Assembly: GCA_945907225.1 (NCBI GenBank)
Contig: CAMDSN010000022.1
Coordinates: 1 to 12,962, forward strand
DNA: 12,962 nt
DNA from: Flavobacterium psychrophilum
GTDB taxonomy: Bacteria > Bacteroidota > Bacteroidia > Flavobacteriales > Flavobacteriaceae
Direction of reading: 5' to 3'
Shown here piece after piece: positions 3,374 through 12,962 of the stretch (positions are counted from its first letter, which is position 1; the number at the start of each line of letters is the position of its first letter). Under the pieces are notes generated by a model. The model was given only the letters and a program-made list of their open reading frames with translations, was not told where the DNA came from and ran no database searches. Made by a program: the position numbers and the translations under genes.

Positions 3374-6300
3374 TTATAACTTCCTCCTATTATCGTCAGA
3401 TTGCGTATCAATTAACTTATTATAGGGGTCAACACCAACTACGGTTGGCTTTTCATTTATAATAATAGAAATTGAATTGTCGATTTTATTAATTTTTATT
3501 TTCTTTAAATACAATTCTTTATCCGATTTTTTTCCTTTTTTAGTTTGCTCACTAAAAATACCTATTTCAACATAATCAGCTAAAGGATATGATTCTATTG
3601 CAAACGAATCTCCCTTTTTAATATAGGAAAGTGTTTTACCATTTTTGTCTTTATAAATTCGTTTTCCGGTATCATCGGCTTTGTATTTTGAAACTTGAAA
3701 CTCAATGTAAACCTGGTATTTTCCGTTAGAAAGTTTTTTAGATGTGGCTTTGCTCACTTTGTTGTCATACAACGTAATGGTTTCAAACATGTCGTTAATT
3801 ACATAGTGCAAACTATCCGGTGTTACGGCTTTCAATTGGGCTACAAGCTCAATAGAATTAGTATAAGGCGCTTCTTGATATGCGACTTTTTTAATATACT
3901 CTTTGAGAGCATCGTTCATTTTTTTCTCTCCAATAAAATCACTCAAAGCATATAAAACCAAAGAGCCTTTATTGTAATGAATGTATTGTTGGTTTTCATT
4001 AAACATTAACGGTTGTTCTTTTTTGCTTTCAAAAGTTCTTCCTTGAAGGTAACTGTCTAAAGCATCTTTTAAGAATTTGCGCATTTGCGATTTTCCATAG
4101 GTATGTTCTAAGACTTTTAGCGAACTATATTCTGAAAGACTTTCAGATAAAAGTGTTGCCCCTTGCACGTTAGCTCCAATAACTTGATGTGCCCACCATT
4201 GATGTGCGATTTCATGTGAAGTTACCGAAAAAGGATAATCAACTGCGTCTGGATTTTCATCATCTACAGCAGCTATAAATCCTATAGCTTCAGAAAATGG
4301 GATTGTGTTAGCAAAAGACTGTGCAAATCCACCACCAGTCTTAGGAAACTCAATGATACGAAGCTGTTTGTGTTGGTACGGACTAAAATTATTAGTATAA
4401 TAATCCAATGATTTTTTAGCGGCCAATATCATTCTGCCCAAATTGTATTCATGCCCTTTGTGATAATAAATTTCGATGTTTACATTTTTCCATTTGTCTT
4501 TTTTAACTTCATATTTAGCAGAATTGAATGCATAAAAGTTTAGCATTTTTCTGTCCATTTTATAATGAAAATAATTTCTGCCATCTTTACACCATTTTTT
4601 TGTTAAATATCCTGGCGCAATGGCAGTTTGATCCCCGGCTGTGCTTACAGTTGTTTCAAACGTAATCCAATCGGCATCATTACTAATGTACGTATTCTTT
4701 CTGGCGATACTATCCATTGGAGATGCCATTCGGTTTTTTGGTTTTAAACCATATTTTTTTCTAACATCGTCATCGGTAAGTTCGCCTTGGTCTGAATAAC
4801 CTATAGAAGGAAACATGGAATTGTTCAAGAACGTTCCGTTATAAATTACTGGAGAATTATCATTAAATAAATCATTTGGTATATTTTTAACTGTAAAGCT
4901 CATTTGAATAGAATCCCCTGGTATTAGTGGTTTTTCTAATCGATAGATATCAAAATTCATGATGGTGTCTTTGGAAACTAATTTTGTTTTAACTTCAAAT
5001 GTCACTTTAGTTTCTTCGCTATGGTTTACAAAGATAGAATCTATGGATTGAGCCGTTTTATTCTTTAATGTATAGCTGCCATTAGCTACGAAATTTCGCT
5101 CCTCTGGGAACAAATCCATATTTACTTTAACATCTATAATTCTGGGCTGGGCTTTATTTTCATACTTTTTATACTTCTTTTCCCATTGTGCCATTTCTTG
5201 CTCTTGTTCTTTGCTCGATTTATTCAATTTTGCAATATTATCTTCATAATAAATAGCAGATCCGATTCCTAAAAATACAAAAAATGAAAGCGTCGCAGGA
5301 ATCGCGATTTGCATTTTAATACGATTTTTAGCAGCTACAAAACGTGCTTTTACGGATTGCCCTAATCCTCTTGTCCAAAACAATAAGGACATAGCGAACA
5401 ACACTAGGCCTAATGCCAACCAATAAAATTTATATAAATAGTAATATTTTAAACCATGTCCGTAGCCATTCATATCTGAATAATCAAAACTAGGGTCACT
5501 ATTGAATTGGTAAATTTGTTGTTCTACGCCAATAGCGGGTAAAAAGTTTAATCCTATCGAAAGTATCAAAAGCACAAAGAAACCTAACAAATAATTTTTG
5601 AATAGCGTTTGAATAAAAACTGATAAAAGTGCCCAAATGATGCAATGAATTAATCTAATACCATACAATTCAAACAAATAATGACCAATTTCAAAATTAT
5701 AATACCCTTTGTAAATTTGAAATAAAATGCCCGATATCATAATAACGGACAACAATACTATTTGCATTTTTACTATTGCTATAAATTTTGAAAACAATAA
5801 AACCCAATTTGGTGTAGGCGTTACATCTATCAAATGGTTCATTCTAGCAGTTGCACTACGATGTATTAAAATTCCAGCGAAAAGAAAAGTCAACAAATTT
5901 ATAAACAAACTAAATGTAGTTCCTGGAATTTGCAACATTTGCCAAGTAACTGGATACGTTTCCGTTCCAAAAAACTGACCGGCTGATAAGGAAGTGATTA
6001 AGATAAAGAGCATTCCAACAATAACAATACTAATGAAAACCCAGTTTTTGACAATGAATTTAAAATCAACATTAGACAAACTCCAAGCTGTTTTGATGTT
6101 TTGCTTTGTTGAAAAATCAAAGTTGATGTGTGGAAGATTTATTTTTGTAATTCCACCGAAATTATTTTTTGTTACTCGCTCGTTATTTTTGCTTTGCCCT
6201 AGTGTTAAAGCGGTTTGTGTAAACGAAAAATAGCGATACATTAGTAGTAAAATCAAGCTAGAAATCCCCAACCAAATAAGACGATTGTATAGCACCACAC

Positions 6301-7021
6301 CAGTATAAGGCAATAGGTTATCATTTTTTTCATACACCGTCCAATATTTAGTATAATAATCTAAGGCATCCAAACCAAAAGGTTCAAAAAGTGCCACTAG
6401 GTATCGGTTGTCGGCATCTTGAGTAAAGCTACTAATGATACTTTGAACAAAGAGTAATAAAATAACCGTTATAAATCCAACTGAAATATTTCTTGTGATA
6501 GTTACCATTGAAAACACAATAACTCCATAAAAAATTAGATTCGGTATAATAAAGATGAGATAACTTTGAATGTAAGCTATAAAACGATGAGGTCCCAATA
6601 AATCGGGATTAACGCCAGGTAAAAAAGACGCTAAAAAAGCCCCCAATCCAACAAACAAAGTGATAATAATAACCACCAATAAAGAACTTAAAAACTTGCT
6701 CATTAGATAATCCCATTTCGAAAACGGATACGAAAATAAAATGGTGTGCATGTTGTATTTAAAATCCCTGTAAACGGAAGCGCCAATAATTGAGGGTAAT
6801 AAGAAATAAATGAAAACCGATAATCCGTTCAACATTCCGTTTAAAGCGATGGGCGAGTTTGCCATAGCATTTGAAGAGGTAGTCGTTTTAAAACTGTCAA
6901 AAATCCCTAAACTACTACCCATTAAGAGTAACGAAAGACCAAAAAAGATGGCTACATAGATATAAAAAGCGGGGTTTTTCAACCACCTTTTTAACTCGAA
7001 GGTAAAAATAGTTCCAAACAT
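3374..7021 (-). CDS. ABC-2 type permease fused to a periplasmic M1-family metallopeptidase domain
   Basis: Fusion of an ABC membrane subunit with a zinc peptidase, 1215 residues. Residues 1-595 hold about 12-13 membrane helices in two ABC-2-like halves (roughly 18-264 and 327-592), the last helix being TLSFFVFLGIGSAIYY. The remainder (about 600-1215) is an M1 gluzincin region expected in the periplasm. Zinc ligands are His936 and His940 in HEIAHQWW plus Glu960; Glu937 is the catalytic base, and Tyr1016 in YNKG aligns with the M1 proton-donor tyrosine. Two departures from classic aminopeptidases: 19 rather than 18 residues separate HExxH from Glu960, and the GAMEN exopeptidase motif is replaced by FAQSFANTIPF (899-909). 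I recall both as typical of this fusion family, so this is probably not decay. The substrate is unknown. The ATG lies one base after the ATPase stop, so the two are translationally coupled and form one transporter. Confidence 0.93.
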   Translation of the reverse strand: MFGTIFTFELKRWLKNPAFYIYVAIFFGLSLLLMGSSLGIFDSFKTTTSSNAMANSPIALNGMLNGLSVFIYFLLPSIIGASVYRDFKYNMHTILFSYPFSKWDYLMSKFLSSLLVVIIITLFVGLGAFLASFLPGVNPDLLGPHRFIAYIQSYLIFIIPNLIFYGVIVFSMVTITRNISVGFITVILLLFVQSIISSFTQDADNRYLVALFEPFGLDALDYYTKYWTVYEKNDNLLPYTGVVLYNRLIWLGISSLILLLMYRYFSFTQTALTLGQSKNNERVTKNNFGGITKINLPHINFDFSTKQNIKTAWSLSNVDFKFIVKNWVFISIVIVGMLFILITSLSAGQFFGTETYPVTWQMLQIPGTTFSLFINLLTFLFAGILIHRSATARMNHLIDVTPTPNWVLLFSKFIAIVKMQIVLLSVIMISGILFQIYKGYYNFEIGHYLFELYGIRLIHCIIWALLSVFIQTLFKNYLLGFFVLLILSIGLNFLPAIGVEQQIYQFNSDPSFDYSDMNGYGHGLKYYYLYKFYWLALGLVLFAMSLLFWTRGLGQSVKARFVAAKNRIKMQIAIPATLSFFVFLGIGSAIYYEDNIAKLNKSSKEQEQEMAQWEKKYKKYENKAQPRIIDVKVNMDLFPEERNFVANGSYTLKNKTAQSIDSIFVNHSEETKVTFEVKTKLVSKDTIMNFDIYRLEKPLIPGDSIQMSFTVKNIPNDLFNDNSPVIYNGTFLNNSMFPSIGYSDQGELTDDDVRKKYGLKPKNRMASPMDSIARKNTYISNDADWITFETTVSTAGDQTAIAPGYLTKKWCKDGRNYFHYKMDRKMLNFYAFNSAKYEVKKDKWKNVNIEIYYHKGHEYNLGRMILAAKKSLDYYTNNFSPYQHKQLRIIEFPKTGGGFAQSFANTIPFSEAIGFIAAVDDENPDAVDYPFSVTSHEIAHQWWAHQVIGANVQGATLLSESLSEYSSLKVLEHTYGKSQMRKFLKDALDSYLQGRTFESKKEQPLMFNENQQYIHYNKGSLVLYALSDFIGEKKMNDALKEYIKKVAYQEAPYTNSIELVAQLKAVTPDSLHYVINDMFETITLYDNKVSKATSKKLSNGKYQVYIEFQVSKYKADDTGKRIYKDKNGKTLSYIKKGDSFAIESYPLADYVEIGIFSEQTKKGKKSDKELYLKKIKINKIDNSISIIINEKPTVVGVDPYNKLIDTQSDDNRRKL

Positions 7022-7022
7022 A

Positions 7023-7898
7023 TTATTGGTCGTTTTTTAGTGCCACAAAATACACGTCTTCCAACTGTGGTTCGGCAGCAGAGAAACTATCTTTTGGCTT
7101 TTCTATACTGAAAACTCTAATGTTCAATGTATTATCCTGATTATAATTCGAAGAAATAATATTGAACTCTTTTTCGTTTTGTTCTAGTGTTTCCCTGGTG
7201 ATAATTTTGGTCCAAATTTGTCCTTTTAATGCATCCGTAGCCGCTTTTGGAGTGCTTTGGTTTAAAATTTTCCCGCCGTTTAAAATGGCCATTTCATGGC
7301 ATAACTCTTTTACGTCATCAACTATGTGCGTTGAAAATATTACAGTATGATTGGTGCCAATTTCGCGCAACACATTCAAAAAACGGTGTCTTTCTGCTGG
7401 ATCTAACCCTGCAGTTGGTTCGTCAACAATAATTAACTTCGGATTATTTAAAAGTAGTTGTGCAATACCAAAACGTTGTTTCATTCCGCCTGAGTAACCA
7501 TTTACATTTTTCGTTCTTACATCATATAAATTGGTCACTTCTAAAACCTGTTTTACAATAGCTTTTCTGTCTTTATTAGATGAAATACCTTTTAATCTTG
7601 CAAAATAATCTAATAAATTTTCGGCAGACATGTTTGGATAAACCCCAAATTCTTGCGGCAAATAACCCAAAATTTTTCTTAACTCCATTTGATTTTCCAG
7701 CACATTGATTCCGTCAAATTCTATAGAACCTGAATCTGGTTTTTGGAGGGTTGCAATGGTTCTCATTAAACTTGATTTTCCTGCTCCATTTGGCCCTAAA
7801 AGCCCAAACATTCCCGAACCAATTTCAAGATTTAAATTATCTAAGGCCTTCACGCCATTACTATAGGTCTTGCTTAAATTATTAATTTGAAGTTTCAT
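7023..7898 (-). CDS. ABC transporter ATP-binding protein (partner of the permease/M1 peptidase)
   Basis: Cytoplasmic ATPase energising the membrane protein encoded immediately downstream. All nucleotide-binding motifs are intact in 291 residues: Walker A GPNGAGKS (35-42), Q-loop LPQEFG with Gln82, signature YSGGMKQR (135-142), Walker B LIIVDEP with Glu160 and the D-loop GLD (to 166), and H-loop His191 (FSTHIVDD). About 90 residues follow the core, ending LEDVYFVAL, a common C-terminal feature of ABC-2 (CcmA/YhaQ-like) ATPases. Substrate and direction cannot be read from it; ABC-2 systems are usually exporters. The gene is first in a two-gene operon, with its TAA and the next ATG separated by one base. 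It is divergent from thiL across 193 bp. No clean TAnnTTTG element is visible before it on the minus strand. Confidence 0.93.
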   Translation of the reverse strand: MKLQINNLSKTYSNGVKALDNLNLEIGSGMFGLLGPNGAGKSSLMRTIATLQKPDSGSIEFDGINVLENQMELRKILGYLPQEFGVYPNMSAENLLDYFARLKGISSNKDRKAIVKQVLEVTNLYDVRTKNVNGYSGGMKQRFGIAQLLLNNPKLIIVDEPTAGLDPAERHRFLNVLREIGTNHTVIFSTHIVDDVKELCHEMAILNGGKILNQSTPKAATDALKGQIWTKIITRETLEQNEKEFNIISSNYNQDNTLNIRVFSIEKPKDSFSAAEPQLEDVYFVALKNDQ

Positions 7899-9164: not shown

Positions 9165-9830
9165 TTAAATAACCCCTTTAATTTTAGCTTCATTTATTAG
9201 ATCAATATCCTCATCAGCTTTTACTTCAAGGACATCTTTTATATTAATTTTTCGTTTTTCTATAGCGCTGATAGACAGAGGAATATACTGCGGCAAATCT
9301 GCTGTTTTGACTCCTTTAGACAAATGAAACAAAATTTGCTTGTCAAAAGCATCTAATTCAATATTATTGTATTGGACCTGACCAACTAATTTTATTACGG
9401 TTTGACTATAATATTTTTCACTATTAATGATCTTATCAAAGGCAAAAATTAGTTCATCAAAAGTTAGGTCATTTTTAATAATCAATCCATTAGGATTGAT
9501 ATTTTTAATAATGTTATTGATTTTTAATAATTCCGTGTGCATAGTTAATAGGATCACTTTACAATTTGGCATTACCTTTTTAATAAAAGTTGCTAAATCT
9601 TCCCCTGAATAAATTTCTTTTTCAGTAAATTCAGGCATACTGATATCAAAAAAAGCAACATCAAAATGGCTTTTAGCCTCATCAATATTCTCATATCCAG
9701 ATTGACAGTTGTTGGCCTGAGTAACTGTAAAGTCATATCCTTGTTGACTAAACTTTTCTAAAGCATTTTTATAAGCTTGTATGATAAACGGGTGGTCATC
9801 AACTATTAGAATATTCATTTTTTTTGTCAT
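9165..9830 (-). CDS. Two-component response regulator, receiver plus diverged LuxR-like HTH
   Basis: Predicted DNA-binding output of the adjacent kinase. The receiver domain (about 5-135) has the acidic pair Asp11-Asp12 in LIVDDHP, phospho-acceptor Asp62 in FFDISMP, Thr96 in LLTMH and the conserved Lys119 (IIKND). A linker leads to a C-terminal region (about 157-201, LDAFDKQILFHLSKGVKTADLPQYIPLS...KRKINIKDVL) that follows the LuxR/NarL helix pattern but lacks its usual signature residues; I recall this form as common in Flavobacteria. A tail rich in acidic and basic residues follows. The ATG at 9830 overlaps the kinase TGA as ATGA, which favours it over the internal Met5 and implies translational coupling. 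Targets are unknown; the inverted repeats in front of the peptide gene are candidates. It converges on thiL, 23 bp away. Confidence 0.9.
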   Translation of the reverse strand: MTKKMNILIVDDHPFIIQAYKNALEKFSQQGYDFTVTQANNCQSGYENIDEAKSHFDVAFFDISMPEFTEKEIYSGEDLATFIKKVMPNCKVILLTMHTELLKINNIIKNINPNGLIIKNDLTFDELIFAFDKIINSEKYYSQTVIKLVGQVQYNNIELDAFDKQILFHLSKGVKTADLPQYIPLSISAIEKRKINIKDVLEVKADEDIDLINEAKIKGVI

Positions 9831-11875
9831 GCTTTGCTTTCTATTAGTTGAATAGTATTTATAGGAATCTGAATCTCTATTCTAGTGCCTTCTCCCTTTG
9901 CTGAAATGATTTCAATTTTGCCTTGACAGTCGCTAGTTCTGGTGATCATGTTTTGCATTCCAATCCCTTTGCTCTTTTTATTCACATCAAAACCAATCCC
10001 GTCATCTTTTAAAAGAAATGCAACATTTTCTGTGTTTCCAGTAATTTCGATAGTAATATTTTTTGCAGTTGCATATTTATTTATATTTTGCAAACCCTCT
10101 TGTAATATTCTGTACATATTAATTTTTATGGCATTTTCTATTTTATCCCAGTTAATTGAGGGATCTATATGATATATTACTTCAGAATCGTGAAAAGATT
10201 TTTGTTCTTCAAGTAGATTGTGAACAATTGAGACAAAGTTATTAATTAAAACTAGTTTTTCTCTATTCAAATCATGTGAAATTTCACGAATATCTTGTTC
10301 AATGATTTTTAATTCATTTAACAATTCAGCTCTTTTAGTGGCTGCATCAGCATCGGTATTTGAATTTAAGCTATCAAGGTTTAACCGCAGGCCAAACATT
10401 CGGCCAAGAACACCATCATGGAGATCTTGGGCCAACCGTTTTTTTTCTTTATAGCGACTTTCATCAATAATAGATTGTTGTAACATCATCAAATTAAATA
10501 TTTCTTCGTTCGCTTTTTGTTGGGTTTGCTTAAATAATAATTCTCTTGTTTTAGCTCGCTGTGCTCTTACTATAAATAATAAAGAAACCAAAATAAAAGT
10601 TATGGCAAAACCATAAAGAAGGTTTCTGTTTTTGTCTTCTAATACATCCTTTTCTTGAATTATTTCTTGCGTCCCAAACTGAATTCTTGCAAATCTGTCT
10701 TTTGAATTTCTTTCAACAATCTGAAGACTATCCGATATTTTTAAATAATCCTCGGAATATTTAGATGCATTTGTGTTGTCAACTACTGATCCCTGTTTTA
10801 AGGAAAAAAGTATATCGATAGGATTTTTATTAATACTTGATAAATCTAGAGCCCTGTTTGCATACTCAAGCGCCTTATCTTTTAAGTTTAAATAATAATA
10901 ATATTCAGAAATATGTATATAACTAATAATAATTGCTGAACTATCATTTGTTTTTTTTCTAATTGCTAAAGATTCAAAAAATAAATTAGGTAAAGAAGTT
11001 AAATCATTTATTTTCAACTTTGAATAGGCCTTGTTGTCAATTATATTAGAATAGACATCTGGTAGTTTTACTTTCAACGTGATGTCTTTAAGGGATTTGT
11101 CAAAATATTTTATGGCCTGATTGTGATTTTTTAAATTTTGATATACCAATCCAATATTACTTAGGCAAATTGCCTCTTCATGAAAGTTATTTGCAATTTC
11201 ATTTTTCTTTATTTCAATAAGAGCTTTATTGAAATAGTTAATAGATTCATTATAATCCTTTAGTTGGTTTGAATTTAAGCCAAGTTGATTTAAAATATTA
11301 TAACGCATTATTTTATCAGATGTCTTTTTATTTGCAACAAGAGATTTTGAAAGACTTAAATCTGATCCAAGATAATCGCCGGCATAAAATTGAATTATCC
11401 CTTTCTTTAATAGAATAGTTGAATAACCTTCATAATCTCTAAGTTGTTCATAAATTTTTTCTGATTTAGTGTAATAATAAAAAGAACTATCAATCACTTT
11501 TACTTGTTCAAAATAATTTCCGAATGATCTATAAGACTTCGCTAAATTAATAATGTCAGCTGAAGCTATAGAATTTTTCTTCAATAGCTCGGCAGCAATT
11601 TTATAATTTTCCCATAACCCATTATCATAATATTTAGTAATTAAATCATAATTTAATTCTCTTAAAGATAATGTGTTAGAAGAATTTTGAATGATTGATT
11701 TAACTTTATTCAGATACTTTATTTTTTCTTTTAGTGAAGTTTTATTTTTTTCTGACTTGGCAAACCAATATTTGACACTATCAATTGCAATATTTTCTGA
11801 TTTAAAAGTACTATTGTCCTTCGAACATGAGGTTAGTATAACACAAAAAAATAATATAGAATAAATATTTTTCAA
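9827..11875 (-). CDS. Lipoprotein TPR-domain sensor histidine kinase (HisKA_3/NarL-type); start corrected to TTG at 11875
   Basis: Membrane-bound sensor kinase for the overlapping response regulator. No ATG is available at the 5' end. The first possible start (TTG, 11908) would add an odd N-terminus (MFFFNLTQYFY). The TTG at 11875 gives MKNIYSILFFCVILTSC, a classic lipoprotein signal peptide with lipobox LTSC, so I prefer it (682 residues; add 11 for numbering from 11908). In 11908 numbering: a periplasmic region of tetratricopeptide-like helices (about 60-420, for example NQLGLNSNQLKDYNESINYF and SNIGLVYQNLKNHNQAIKYF), a membrane helix at 430-447, a coiled linker, and the HisKA_3 box RLAQDLHDGVLG with phospho-acceptor His497. 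The HATPase domain has its N-box near 604-616 (EGLQNINKYATAK) and DDGIGFD...GIGMQNM from 635. TPR sensors can bind peptides; the peptide gene next door makes this suggestive only. Confidence 0.88.
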   Translation of the reverse strand: MKNIYSILFFCVILTSCSKDNSTFKSENIAIDSVKYWFAKSEKNKTSLKEKIKYLNKVKSIIQNSSNTLSLRELNYDLITKYYDNGLWENYKIAAELLKKNSIASADIINLAKSYRSFGNYFEQVKVIDSSFYYYTKSEKIYEQLRDYEGYSTILLKKGIIQFYAGDYLGSDLSLSKSLVANKKTSDKIMRYNILNQLGLNSNQLKDYNESINYFNKALIEIKKNEIANNFHEEAICLSNIGLVYQNLKNHNQAIKYFDKSLKDITLKVKLPDVYSNIIDNKAYSKLKINDLTSLPNLFFESLAIRKKTNDSSAIIISYIHISEYYYYLNLKDKALEYANRALDLSSINKNPIDILFSLKQGSVVDNTNASKYSEDYLKISDSLQIVERNSKDRFARIQFGTQEIIQEKDVLEDKNRNLLYGFAITFILVSLLFIVRAQRAKTRELLFKQTQQKANEEIFNLMMLQQSIIDESRYKEKKRLAQDLHDGVLGRMFGLRLNLDSLNSNTDADAATKRAELLNELKIIEQDIREISHDLNREKLVLINNFVSIVHNLLEEQKSFHDSEVIYHIDPSINWDKIENAIKINMYRILQEGLQNINKYATAKNITIEITGNTENVAFLLKDDGIGFDVNKKSKGIGMQNMITRTSDCQGKIEIISAKGEGTRIEIQIPINTIQLIESKA

Positions 11876-11905
11876 ATAGAAATATTGAGTTAAATTGAAG
11901 AAAAA

Positions 11906-11913
11906 CAAATTTA
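11906..11913 (-). promoter_or_regulatory. Possible kinase promoter -7 element (TAAATTTG) at the foot of the terminator
   Basis: The minus strand reads TAAATTTG, an exact TAnnTTTG match, immediately after the T-tract of the upstream terminator. A TTG lies 16 bases upstream inside the hairpin (11932-11930), slightly short of usual spacing. Transcription would start near 11900, about 25 bases before the preferred TTG start. The element overlaps the alternative TTG start at 11908, which argues against that start. Confidence 0.4.
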
Positions 11914-11945
11914 TAAAAAAAAGCTATCACAATGTGATAGCTTTT
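11913..11945 (-). terminator. Strong intrinsic terminator between the peptide gene and the kinase
   Basis: The arms AAAAGCTATCAC (11919-11930) and GTGATAGCTTTT (11934-11945) are perfectly complementary, giving a 12-bp stem with a 3-base loop. On the minus strand the stem runs into eight consecutive T's. It lies 22 bases after the peptide stop. It should end most peptide-gene transcripts before the kinase, allowing the peptide message to be far more abundant than kinase message. Confidence 0.9.
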
Positions 11946-11967: not shown

Positions 11968-12207
11968 TTATTGTCCTATTGGTCTGCTTGATCCTCTACC
12001 TCCAATTTCGAATTGTCCTATTGGTCGACTTGAACCTCTACCTCCAATTTCAAATTGTCCTATTGGACGGCTTGATCCTCTACCTCCAATTTCAAATTGT
12101 TCTGTAGGTATACTTGATACTCTATTCATTGTATGCGTAGGAGTGGTAAATGATGTGACTACTAGTAATAAGGCTAATAATCCAATTGTTGATGCTAATT
12201 TTTTCAT
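11968..12207 (-). CDS. Secreted peptide precursor with three identical 14-residue repeats (candidate pro-peptide)
   Basis: A 79-residue protein of no family I recognise. Residues 1-20 (MKKLASTIGLLALLLVVTSF) are a Sec-type signal sequence with two lysines and a hydrophobic core; the cleavage site is unclear, probably within TSFTTPTHT. A short spacer leads to three perfect copies of FEIGGRGSSRPIGQ at 38-51, 52-65 and 66-79, the last Gln being the final residue. Residues 28-37 (NRVSSIPTEQ) look like a decayed half copy of GRGSSRPIGQ. There is no cysteine; each unit has one acidic and two basic residues and is Gly/Ser-rich, so likely unfolded. It lies between two sensor kinases on the same strand and has its own terminator. 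A peptide signal precursor is the leading guess. A secreted antimicrobial or structural repeat peptide is possible, and no modification or processing enzyme is in view. Confidence 0.85.
   Translation of the reverse strand: MKKLASTIGLLALLLVVTSFTTPTHTMNRVSSIPTEQFEIGGRGSSRPIGQFEIGGRGSSRPIGQFEIGGRGSSRPIGQ
11971..12096 (-). repeat. In-frame 42-bp tandem repeat, three copies
   Basis: The units are 12055-12096, 12013-12054 and 11971-12012 in coding order. They encode identical peptides but differ at five sites, all synonymous: Phe TTT/TTT/TTC, one Gly GGA/GGT/GGA, one Ser AGC/AGT/AGC, and Arg CGT/CGA/AGA (two sites). A degenerate fourth half unit lies at 12097-12126. The copies are old enough to have diverged in DNA but not in protein. 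Confidence 0.95.
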
Positions 12208-12236: not shown

Positions 12237-12302
12237 TTTTACATTTAGTTAAAGTGATAATCCATTATTAATAATGATTGTAGACACTTTAACGATGTAA
12301 AA
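12237..12302. promoter_or_regulatory. 66-bp nested palindrome in front of the peptide gene
   Basis: Three nested symmetric elements share nearly the same centre (about 12270). The outer arms are TTTTACAT (12237-12244) and ATGTAAAA (12295-12302). The middle arms are GTTAAAGTG (12248-12256) and CACTTTAAC (12285-12293). The core is CATTATTAATAATG (12263-12276), a perfect 14-bp palindrome. It ends 30 bases before the peptide ATG. It may be an operator for a dimeric regulator, or a hairpin in the peptide-gene leader; no T-tract follows it, so it is not a normal terminator. Confidence 0.65.
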
Positions 12303-12431
12303 CTAAACAGCTAGTCTCTACTAACGCCTATCAATTGTAGTGTATATGGTAGAATGATACCGTTTGTTAGTAAATGATATTAAAATCTGGGTAGATGGGT
12401 TTTAAGAAAATTGAATTTTTAAAATAGCCGG

Positions 12432-12506: not shown

Positions 12507-12962
12507 CTATGATCTTGCTGTAAAAGGAATTGTAATGTTAATGGATGTGTTTCTCTTTTTGGATTTAATATTAAGCTCTCCGCTCAAAGATTCAACGCGC
12601 TTTCGAATATTCTTTAAGCCAATGCCATCATTATTTGTTTTCACATTAAATCCTATTCCGTCATCAGAAATAGACATGCAAATATTGGAATCGCACAAAA
12701 TTAAATCAATCCGTATATTTTTAGCATCTGCATGTTTATCTATATTGTGACACGCTTCTTGAATGATTCTATATAAATTCATTTTTATCCCACTTGAAAC
12801 GAGGTTCCAATCAATAGCATCATCATATTCAAATACACACTTTAATCCTGTTGAAGATTTGTACCCCATTATAAAGTTTTCCAAAAGGGCAATAAAACTG
12901 GAATTTTCCTTAAAAACATCTGTGTTTAGGTTGTGGGCAATGTTTCTAATTTCCTGTTCAAT
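12507..12962 (-). CDS. Sensor histidine kinase (NarL/HisKA_3 type), C-terminal fragment (5' end outside window)
   Basis: The last 151 residues of a second sensor kinase; the frame is open to the window edge, so an internal ATG at 12884 is not the start. The fragment begins IEQEIRNIAHNLN, which corresponds to IEQDIREISHDLN after the phospho-acceptor helix of the downstream kinase. It continues through a complete HATPase domain: N-box YRIIQEACHNIDKHADAKN, G1 box SDDGIGFNV and G2 box DGIGLKNIRKR, ending in NITIPFTARS. It is clearly paralogous to the TPR kinase (compare IKMNLYRIIQEACHNIDKHA with IKINMYRILQEGLQNINKYA), so the locus probably arose by duplication. No response regulator follows it; the next gene on its strand is the repeat peptide, 299 bases away. 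Its sensor domain is not visible. Confidence 0.9.
   Translation of the reverse strand: MEQEIRNIAHNLNTDVFKENSSFIALLENFIMGYKSSTGLKCVFEYDDAIDWNLVSSGIKMNLYRIIQEACHNIDKHADAKNIRIDLILCDSNICMSISDDGIGFNVKTNNDGIGLKNIRKRVESLSGELNIKSKKRNTSINITIPFTARS

What the first reader, a model, noticed from the sequence alone, without database searches (positions are those of the whole stretch)
11968..12207. Secreted multi-copy peptide precursor whose repeats differ only synonymously
Three tandem 14-residue units (FEIGGRGSSRPIGQ) are identical in protein, while the 42-bp DNA units differ at five positions, every one silent, including three different Arg codons (CGT, CGA, AGA). This is the pattern expected if each unit is released as the same active peptide, as in yeast alpha-factor-type precursors. 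A signal sequence precedes them, and the last unit ends exactly at the stop codon. I do not recognise the family. The repeats and silent changes are seen; the role as a processed peptide is inferred.
Basis: partly seen in the sequence, partly recalled or inferred. Interest (0 to 1): 0.85.

Follow-up and report, generated by a model that had tools for sequence, protein, structure and literature searches.

The report
Multi-copy bacterial signal peptide and receptor
In many Flavobacterium species a small exported protein made of identical repeated units is encoded right beside a sensor kinase, and the units change from species to species together with the sensor's outer part but not its kinase core, as expected of a chemical signal and its matching receptor.

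Summary
In detail: ORF 12207-11968(-) is a signal peptide plus three 14-residue units identical in protein; their DNA differs at 5 positions, all silent. It belongs to a family matched in 236 of 398 Flavobacterium-genus genomes (profile, E<=0.01). Units are near-identical within a gene (pS 0.34, pN 0.047, 92 loci) but differ strongly between genes. Of 123 loci examined, 6 precursors end at a contig edge; in the other 117 a TPR histidine kinase follows directly on the same strand, with a terminator-like hairpin between in 101 of 110 tested. Unit and TPR domain co-vary beyond kinase or species distance (0 of 1000 permutations). Fifteen pairs of loci with kinase domains 88-96% identical have both different units and TPR domains only 38-45% identical. 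In the window's own MAG a second contig matches at 95% up to codon 23 of the precursor and again from late in the TPR domain, with no match between. Best reading: a peptide-pheromone precursor and its polymorphic receptor, like ComX-ComP or agr in logic but with a multi-copy precursor and TPR sensor. Secretion, cleavage and binding are inferred.

The parts
11968..12207 (-). precursor gene, 79 aa, of the multi-copy peptide
   Evidence: homologues
12139..12207 (-). conserved signal peptide (judged by eye), codons 1-23 (MKKLASTIGLLALLLVVTSFTTP)
   Evidence: mean pairwise identity of residues 1-22 is 70% over 87 loci; 95% DNA identity to contig C166 ends in codon 23
12097..12138 (-). probable decayed first unit, THTMNRVSSIPTEQ
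   Evidence: resemblance to the unit at R, SS, P, Q; inferred
12055..12096 (-). unit 1, FEIGGRGSSRPIGQ
12013..12054 (-). unit 2, FEIGGRGSSRPIGQ
11971..12012 (-). unit 3, FEIGGRGSSRPIGQ
11919..11945 (-). intrinsic-terminator-like hairpin with T run between precursor and kinase genes
   Evidence: fold energy -13.5; such a hairpin in 101 of 110 loci, mean 4.2 (maximum 10) in 20 shuffles of the spacers
9827..11908 (-). TPR histidine kinase, proposed receptor; the true start is probably TTG at 11875 (682 aa, as P0021)
   Evidence: Pfam TPR, HisKA_3, HATPase_c; P0021 has 682 aa; the start chosen by my script is TTG in 106 of 110 loci
10709..11803 (-). TPR superhelix, about residues 36-400, proposed extracytoplasmic ligand-binding domain
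   Evidence: AlphaFold2 pLDDT mostly above 90 between residues 41 and 390; matches to peptide-binding TPR proteins
10562..10627 (-). transmembrane helix, about residues 428-449 (judged by eye)
   Evidence: sequence NLLYGFAITFILVSLLFIVRAQ
9860..10558 (-). conserved HisKA_3/HATPase kinase core
   Evidence: conservation
9165..9830 (-). response regulator next to the kinase
   Evidence: Response_reg, E 5e-13; a homologue follows the kinase in 101 of 104 loci with room
12342..12376 (-). conserved direct repeat (period 20) upstream of the precursor; its likeness to LytTR-type sites is recalled, not tested
   Evidence: both halves together (at most 8 mismatches of 32) in 98 of 110 loci, 0 in each of 10 shuffles; consensus; occurrence in whole genomes
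12292..12305 (-). conserved TAGTTTTACATCGT element, possible -10 region
   Evidence: found with the second half-site in 76 of 110 loci, 48 or 49 nt apart in 75 of the 76; no shuffled control for this element
12507..12962 (-). end of a second histidine kinase upstream, cut by the contig end
   Evidence: HATPase_c; lies within the 823 nt that are 95% identical to contig C166

Best explanation
The ORF is the precursor of a secreted signalling peptide. It is exported by its signal peptide, and its identical units are the active ligand, probably released singly by proteolysis outside the cytoplasm. The ligand binds the extracytoplasmic TPR domain of the kinase encoded just downstream, which passes phosphate to the adjacent response regulator(s). 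A LytTR regulator encoded upstream in relatives probably binds the direct repeats before the precursor and makes a feedback loop. A leaky terminator and a TTG start keep the receptor scarce relative to the peptide. Peptide and sensor domain evolve as one specificity cassette (pherotype) swapped between conserved flanks. Shown from sequence: gene order, unit identity under purifying selection, co-variation and cassette swap, hairpin, upstream repeats. Inferred: secretion, cleavage, binding, phosphotransfer, feedback, cell-to-cell use.
For: Precursor directly 5' of the TPR kinase in 117 of the 117 loci not cut by a contig edge, of 123 examined (110 by script, 7 more). Units within a gene: pS 0.34, pN 0.047, pN<pS in 91 of 92. 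Unit distance vs TPR distance given kinase distance: r 0.31, 0 of 1000 permutations, n 87; also given kinase plus thiL (r 0.26, n 72) or glyS (r 0.20, n 69) distance, 0 of 1000 each. Of 60 pairs with kinase distance <0.12, Spearman 0.87; all 15 with TPR distance >0.5 have unit distance >0.55, and all 19 with unit distance <0.3 have TPR distance <0.45. DNA profiles show the swapped segment. Hairpin in 101 of 110. Sensor fold resembles NprR, Rap and LGN. A LytTR-RR homologue lies upstream in 99 of 104 loci with room.
Against: No experiment. No protease or exporter gene was seen to be consistently linked in the few loci read in full. Units of 9-19 residues may be large for passive passage through outer-membrane porins (recalled), so sensing could be limited to the producing cell. 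Six of 105 loci show no clear repeat (L023, L109, L119, L138, L144, L154). Co-variation is looser in one direction: of 32 close-kinase pairs with unit distance >0.45, 17 still have TPR distance <0.45, three of them <0.3. One pair over all comparisons has alike units (0.17) with TPR distance 0.52: L063/L071. With glyS as background the margin over the largest null is small (0.20 vs 0.17). The Flavobacterium promoter consensus that I recalled is absent (1 of 110). No LytTR regulator is visible in the window or on contig C166, which end upstream. A shared TPR fold proves no ligand. Pairs of loci are not independent.
Confidence: 0.7

Rival explanations
1. Periplasmic self-sensing: the repeat protein stays, whole or cut, in the producer's periplasm as a multivalent ligand or accessory subunit of the kinase, reporting secretion or envelope proteolysis rather than other cells.
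For: The kinase has a lipoprotein-like start (lipobox-like motif in 99 of 110); no outer-membrane export system was seen among the neighbours read.
Against: Does not predict strong divergence of units between related species or cassette swapping with conserved flanks; a structural subunit need not keep every unit identical.
Confidence: 0.17
2. Antimicrobial peptide with self-sensing: the units are a narrow-spectrum inhibitor and the kinase detects it to induce immunity, so diversity reflects an arms race.
For: Variable secreted peptide next to a two-component system; variants with the same signal peptide but other units.
Against: No immunity, transporter or modification gene was recognised in the conserved neighbourhood glyS - LytTR RR - precursor - kinase - RR - thiL (a few loci read in full); no Pfam, NCBIfam or PADLOC match for the precursor.
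Confidence: 0.08
3. Ordinary repetitive secreted protein homogenised by recombination; its position beside the kinase has no ligand meaning.
For: Tandem repeats are prone to homogenisation; copy number varies, e.g. P0003 with one unit against three.
Against: Units keep many silent differences, so they are not freshly copied (pS 0.34); constant gene order and co-variation with the TPR domain not explained by kinase, thiL or glyS distance.
Confidence: 0.05

Closest known systems
ComQXPA of Bacillus (pheromone ComX, kinase ComP)
   Same: peptide gene beside its kinase; kinase with HisKA_3; precursor and sensor domain polymorphic together while the kinase domain is conserved (what is said of ComQXPA is recalled)
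   Different: no prenyltransferase recognised among neighbours read, no Trp in the window precursor, tandem copies, TPR sensor domain with one TM helix rather than a polytopic sensor
agr of Staphylococcus
   Same: polymorphic peptide-sensor specificity group; LytTR regulator linked to the peptide gene (the agr side is recalled)
   Different: no AgrB-like neighbour recognised in the loci read, no Cys in the window precursor, other kinase type, tandem copies
RRNPP receptors (Rap, NprR) with Phr/NprX peptides
   Different: RRNPP receptors are cytoplasmic and their peptides re-imported (recalled); here the TPR domain appears extracytoplasmic and is fused to a histidine kinase
yeast alpha-factor precursor
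   Same: signal sequence followed by tandem copies of one peptide
   Different: no Lys-Arg processing spacers in the window precursor; bacterial; proposed receptor is a kinase, not a GPCR (alpha-factor side recalled)

Membership tests
ComQXPA | polymorphic precursor and sensor domain with conserved kinase domain | tested here: met
ComQXPA | ComQ prenyltransferase beside the precursor | tested here: not met
   genes next to the precursor in the loci read (L074, L103, L105, L061, window) are response regulators and kinases, with glyS and thiL further out
ComQXPA | Trp in the mature peptide for prenylation | tested here: not met
   no Trp in the window precursor
agr | Cys- or Ser-based ring made by AgrB | tested here: inconclusive
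   no Cys in the window precursor (some relatives have one, e.g. L129) and no AgrB-like neighbour recognised in the loci read; a Ser-based ring was not testable
agr | LytTR response regulator linked to the peptide gene | tested here: met
   PF04397 in the three upstream RRs tested; RR1 homologue upstream in 99 of 104 loci with room; not visible in the window itself
RRNPP | TPR peptide-binding superhelix | tested here: inconclusive
   similar fold; peptide binding not tested
RRNPP | soluble cytoplasmic receptor | tested here: not met
   lipoprotein-like start, TM helix and kinase domain
double-glycine leader peptides exported by C39 transporters | short non-Sec leader ending GG and a peptidase-containing ABC transporter | tested here: not met
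   signal peptide precedes the units and GG lies inside each unit; no such transporter recognised beside the precursor in the loci read
multi-copy pheromone precursor (alpha-factor type) | tandem copies of one peptide under purifying selection | tested here: met
multi-copy pheromone precursor (alpha-factor type) | units released by a processing protease | not testable with these tools
   needs mass spectrometry

The most novel reading that the evidence does not exclude
Flavobacterium, and perhaps Bacteroidota more widely, has its own large class of peptide communication: short secreted precursors, single- or multi-copy, each encoded just 5' of a histidine kinase with an extracytoplasmic TPR domain, with pherotype alleles swapped as a peptide-plus-sensor cassette. 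Even distant kinases (28-39% identity) in genomes without a match to the repeat family are preceded by other short signal-bearing ORFs, several ending in motifs such as PIIIIKRD (8 of 12 loci).
Probability: 0.45. Interest if true: 0.93.

Novelty: new variant of a known kind. Interest (0 to 1): 0.88.

Why it matters
Peptide pheromone systems with polymorphic specificity are, to my knowledge, known almost only from Gram-positive bacteria. This would give a Gram-negative group such a system, with a precursor holding identical copies and a TPR kinase as receptor. It predicts the core sequence of the signal for about a hundred species from sequence alone (the exact ends are unknown), so ligand, receptor and cross-talk can be tested with synthetic peptides, and it offers natural pairs (same kinase, different sensor and peptide) for studying how specificity evolves.

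Tried and rejected
Chance repeat or untranslated ORF: rejected. Membership of a catalogued family: no match for the precursor in Pfam or NCBIfam at E<=1 or PADLOC at E<=0.01; one PDB sequence match at E 0.97, taken as chance. Flavobacterium promoter consensus TTG-N17-23-TAnnTTTG (recalled): 1 of 110, no better than shuffles. Spread outside the genus: a profile search of 397 family genomes gave strong matches (E below 1e-10) only in three Flavobacterium genomes; 17 others lay between 4e-4 and 9e-3, mostly covering only the signal part and often in much longer frames, taken as chance. The first scan of named genomes with the single sequence found nothing; the profile found 95 loci, 80 kept, titled mostly Flavobacterium or Flavobacteriaceae, some under other MAG labels. 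The first within-gene pN/pS chose segments by protein identity and is biased; one search uses whole units. The second half-site alone is a loose pattern (101 of 110 loci, but 14-22 in shuffles), so I count the full repeat instead (98 of 110, 0 in shuffles).

Literature: six searches were answered and no listed title concerns this system; I saw those listings, and of papers only passages of PMC10352776, which describe none. Six further searches timed out and met the cap; four look-ups of two papers failed. Absence from print is therefore weakly tested.

Rows dropped before counts: L112 (100-base filler) and L021 (replaced by L113, same contig); five incomplete kinases, then 18 loci without a simple unit of 20 residues or less; 14 of 110 loci without a usable period and 4 with a single unit. 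Counts on 110 loci leave out the 7 loci added. The 123 loci come from 122 genomes chosen by peptide match, not at random: 120 of the 185 genomes matching, plus two.

Full report
WHAT IS THERE. The finding is exact. On the minus strand, 12207-11968 encodes 79 aa: a signal peptide (judged by eye), 14 residues resembling a decayed unit, and three copies of FEIGGRGSSRPIGQ ending at the stop. Five nucleotides differ among the copies, all silently. Pfam, NCBIfam and PADLOC gave no family for it.

A FAMILY WITH FIXED SIGNAL AND VARIABLE UNITS. Twenty proteins at E<=10 came back. Apart from near-copies of the window protein they share the signal (MKKLATTFGLLALMLIVTSFTTP-like) but carry other units, repeated within their own protein, e.g. 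FEIGGKDRPEPVL or FTTGGKKPVIAE. In the genus, 185 of 398 genomes match the single sequence at E<=0.05 and 236 of 398 match a 20-row profile at E<=0.01 (one of the 20 rows has a typing slip). Outside Flavobacterium nothing convincing was found in a family-wide sample of 397 genomes.

SELECTION ON THE UNIT. I examined 123 loci (window, second contig of its genome, and loci). Over 92 loci with regular units, all-against-all comparison of whole units gives pS 0.34 and pN 0.047; pN<pS in 91, and pN is zero in 30; the exception is L108. Of 96 genes counted, 71 have 3 or 4 copies, and 50 of 92 have 14-residue units. So copies are old enough to have collected silent changes while the peptide is held nearly constant. 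In several genes the spacers between cores drift while the core stays, e.g. IGGRSQDP[ST] in L060 or the two IDGNQSAGQSRKVD copies of L147 (read by eye, not counted). Between genes the units differ: 60 clusters among 87 at a distance of 0.15, 44 at 0.25.

THE PARTNER. In 110 of 123 loci the script found a TPR histidine kinase frame just downstream of the precursor on the same strand. Six precursors lie at contig edges. The remaining 7 have a precursor that my pattern missed; checked afterwards, each is followed within 93 nt by a kinase frame of 676-707 aa. So all 117 loci with room show the pair. The script's kinase start is TTG in 106 of 110, with a lipobox-like motif in 99 of 110. A terminator-like hairpin stands between the two genes in 101 of 110, against a mean of 4.2 (maximum 10) in 20 shuffles. 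A response-regulator homologue follows in 101 of 104 loci with room; a homologue of the LytTR-type regulator lies somewhere upstream in 99 of 104, within 1 kb in 83; thiL is found in 90 of 101 (LytTR domain itself checked in three; glyS and thiL names confirmed). In the loci read in full the order is glyS - LytTR RR - (RR and a second kinase in some) - precursor - TPR kinase - RR - thiL.

CO-EVOLUTION AND CASSETTE SWAP. The TPR part is far less conserved than the kinase part (mean identity 43% against 65%). With 87 loci, unit distance follows TPR distance after removing kinase distance (r 0.31, 0 of 1000 permutations, largest null 0.17), more than it follows kinase distance after removing TPR distance (0.11). 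The result holds with thiL or glyS added as species background (r 0.26 and 0.20; 0 of 1000 each; for glyS the largest null was 0.17, a small margin). Nearest neighbours agree between unit and TPR in 39 of 87, between unit and kinase in 24 of 87. Among 60 pairs with kinase distance <0.12 (Spearman 0.87), 15 have TPR domains more than 50% different, and in all 15 the units differ by more than 0.55; in all 19 pairs with alike units (<0.3) the TPR distance is below 0.45. The link is looser the other way: of 32 pairs with unit distance >0.45, 17 have TPR distance <0.45, as expected if units can change in smaller steps too. One pair over all comparisons, L063/L071, has alike units but TPR domains 52% different. 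L069 and L074 have 96% identical kinase domains, 40% identical TPR domains and different units; DNA identity per 150 nt is 0.65-0.93 upstream, 0.44-0.62 across most of units and TPR, and about 0.9 from the membrane helix on. In L058 against L069 the kinase side is likewise about 0.85-0.9, and the last 150 nt before the precursor 0.97, but DNA further upstream is mostly below 0.75. The pairs are not independent, so these counts describe rather than test.

THE SAME THING INSIDE THE WINDOW'S OWN GENOME. Contig C166 of the same MAG is 95.4% identical to the window over 823 nt, covering the upstream kinase end, the region before the gene and the signal peptide, and stops in codon 23. No blastn match follows through the units and most of the TPR domain; 89% identity resumes over 300 nt from about kinase codon 374, where the contig ends. 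Its precursor has GGKNTPTDLRE-type units. Two strains with different alleles, or a duplicated locus, would both fit; most genomes listed have a single match, which favours alleles. P0010, with a window-like signal but GGKSSNGGLG units, looks like a third type, and P0003 is the window type with one unit instead of three.

REGULATION. Upstream of the precursor a direct repeat with period 20, CATTCACTATCAAACG-N4-CATTCTACCATAAACG, is present with at most 8 mismatches of 32 in 98 of 110 loci, and in none of 10 shuffled sets (consensus). TAGTTTTACATCGTGA follows 48-49 nt from the second half in 75 of the 76 loci where both were found. In 10 genomes a shorter form of the repeat (up to 3 mismatches) was found in 7: once each, twice in the window's genome, always just upstream of the precursor; the reversed control gave none. 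I propose that the LytTR regulator binds there; this is inference, and the regulator is not visible in the window, which ends upstream.

BEYOND THE FAMILY. Fifteen of the genomes without a precursor hit were searched with the kinase: 10 have distant homologues at E<=1e-40 (12 loci), 5 have none at that threshold. In 8 of the 12 loci a short signal-bearing ORF of 54-65 aa ends 20-102 nt before the kinase match, with quite different C-termini (TPIIIVKKD, TPIIIIKRD, EPIIIKPKR, DPPTVPVIKK, GDPFPPKPKG and others); in 4 I saw none convincing (chosen by eye). One of these ORFs has full-length matches in five other genomes at E 5e-7 to 2e-3, of 199 searched, among weaker ones. This suggests a wider architecture, with the tandem-repeat family as one branch; small signal-like ORFs arise by chance, so this needs a proper test.

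JUDGEMENT. A cognate peptide-receptor pair evolving as a cassette is well supported by sequence. Release of single units and use between cells remain inferred; periplasmic self-sensing is the main rival.

Noticed in passing
L273, L275-L280, L284 (upstream of the kinase): Distant TPR kinases in genomes without a match to the repeat family are preceded by other short signal-bearing ORFs, several ending in P-I/L-I/V-I/V-x-K-K/R-D-like motifs; seen in 8 of 12 loci.
   Followed up: partly
G000 contig C166 (L113), against window 12962-12140 and 10789-10491: A second version of the locus in the same MAG with another peptide and TPR domain between near-identical flanks; may be a strain variant.
   Followed up: partly
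L054, L062, L067, L074, L101 upstream of the auxiliary kinase: A signal-bearing protein of about 120-140 aa (MKNLLFGLIA... type) sits before the second kinase in several arrays; no Pfam match for the one tested, L074:3930-4352.
   Followed up: no
window 3374-7021 and 7023-7898 (-): A 1215-aa protein with membrane-like segments and an M1-peptidase-like HEIAHQWW motif (recalled; no NCBIfam match at E<=1e-5) beside an ABC-transporter-like ATPase frame (by eye); also seen in L061 but not in the stretches of L074 or L103.
   Followed up: partly
L023, L109, L119, L138, L144, L154: Family members without a clear tandem repeat, apparently with a single core.
   Followed up: no
L063 and L071: Nearly the same unit (GGRGQVGTGN / GGRGEVGTGS) with TPR domains 52% different, the one pair against the rule that alike units go with alike TPR domains.
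   Followed up: no
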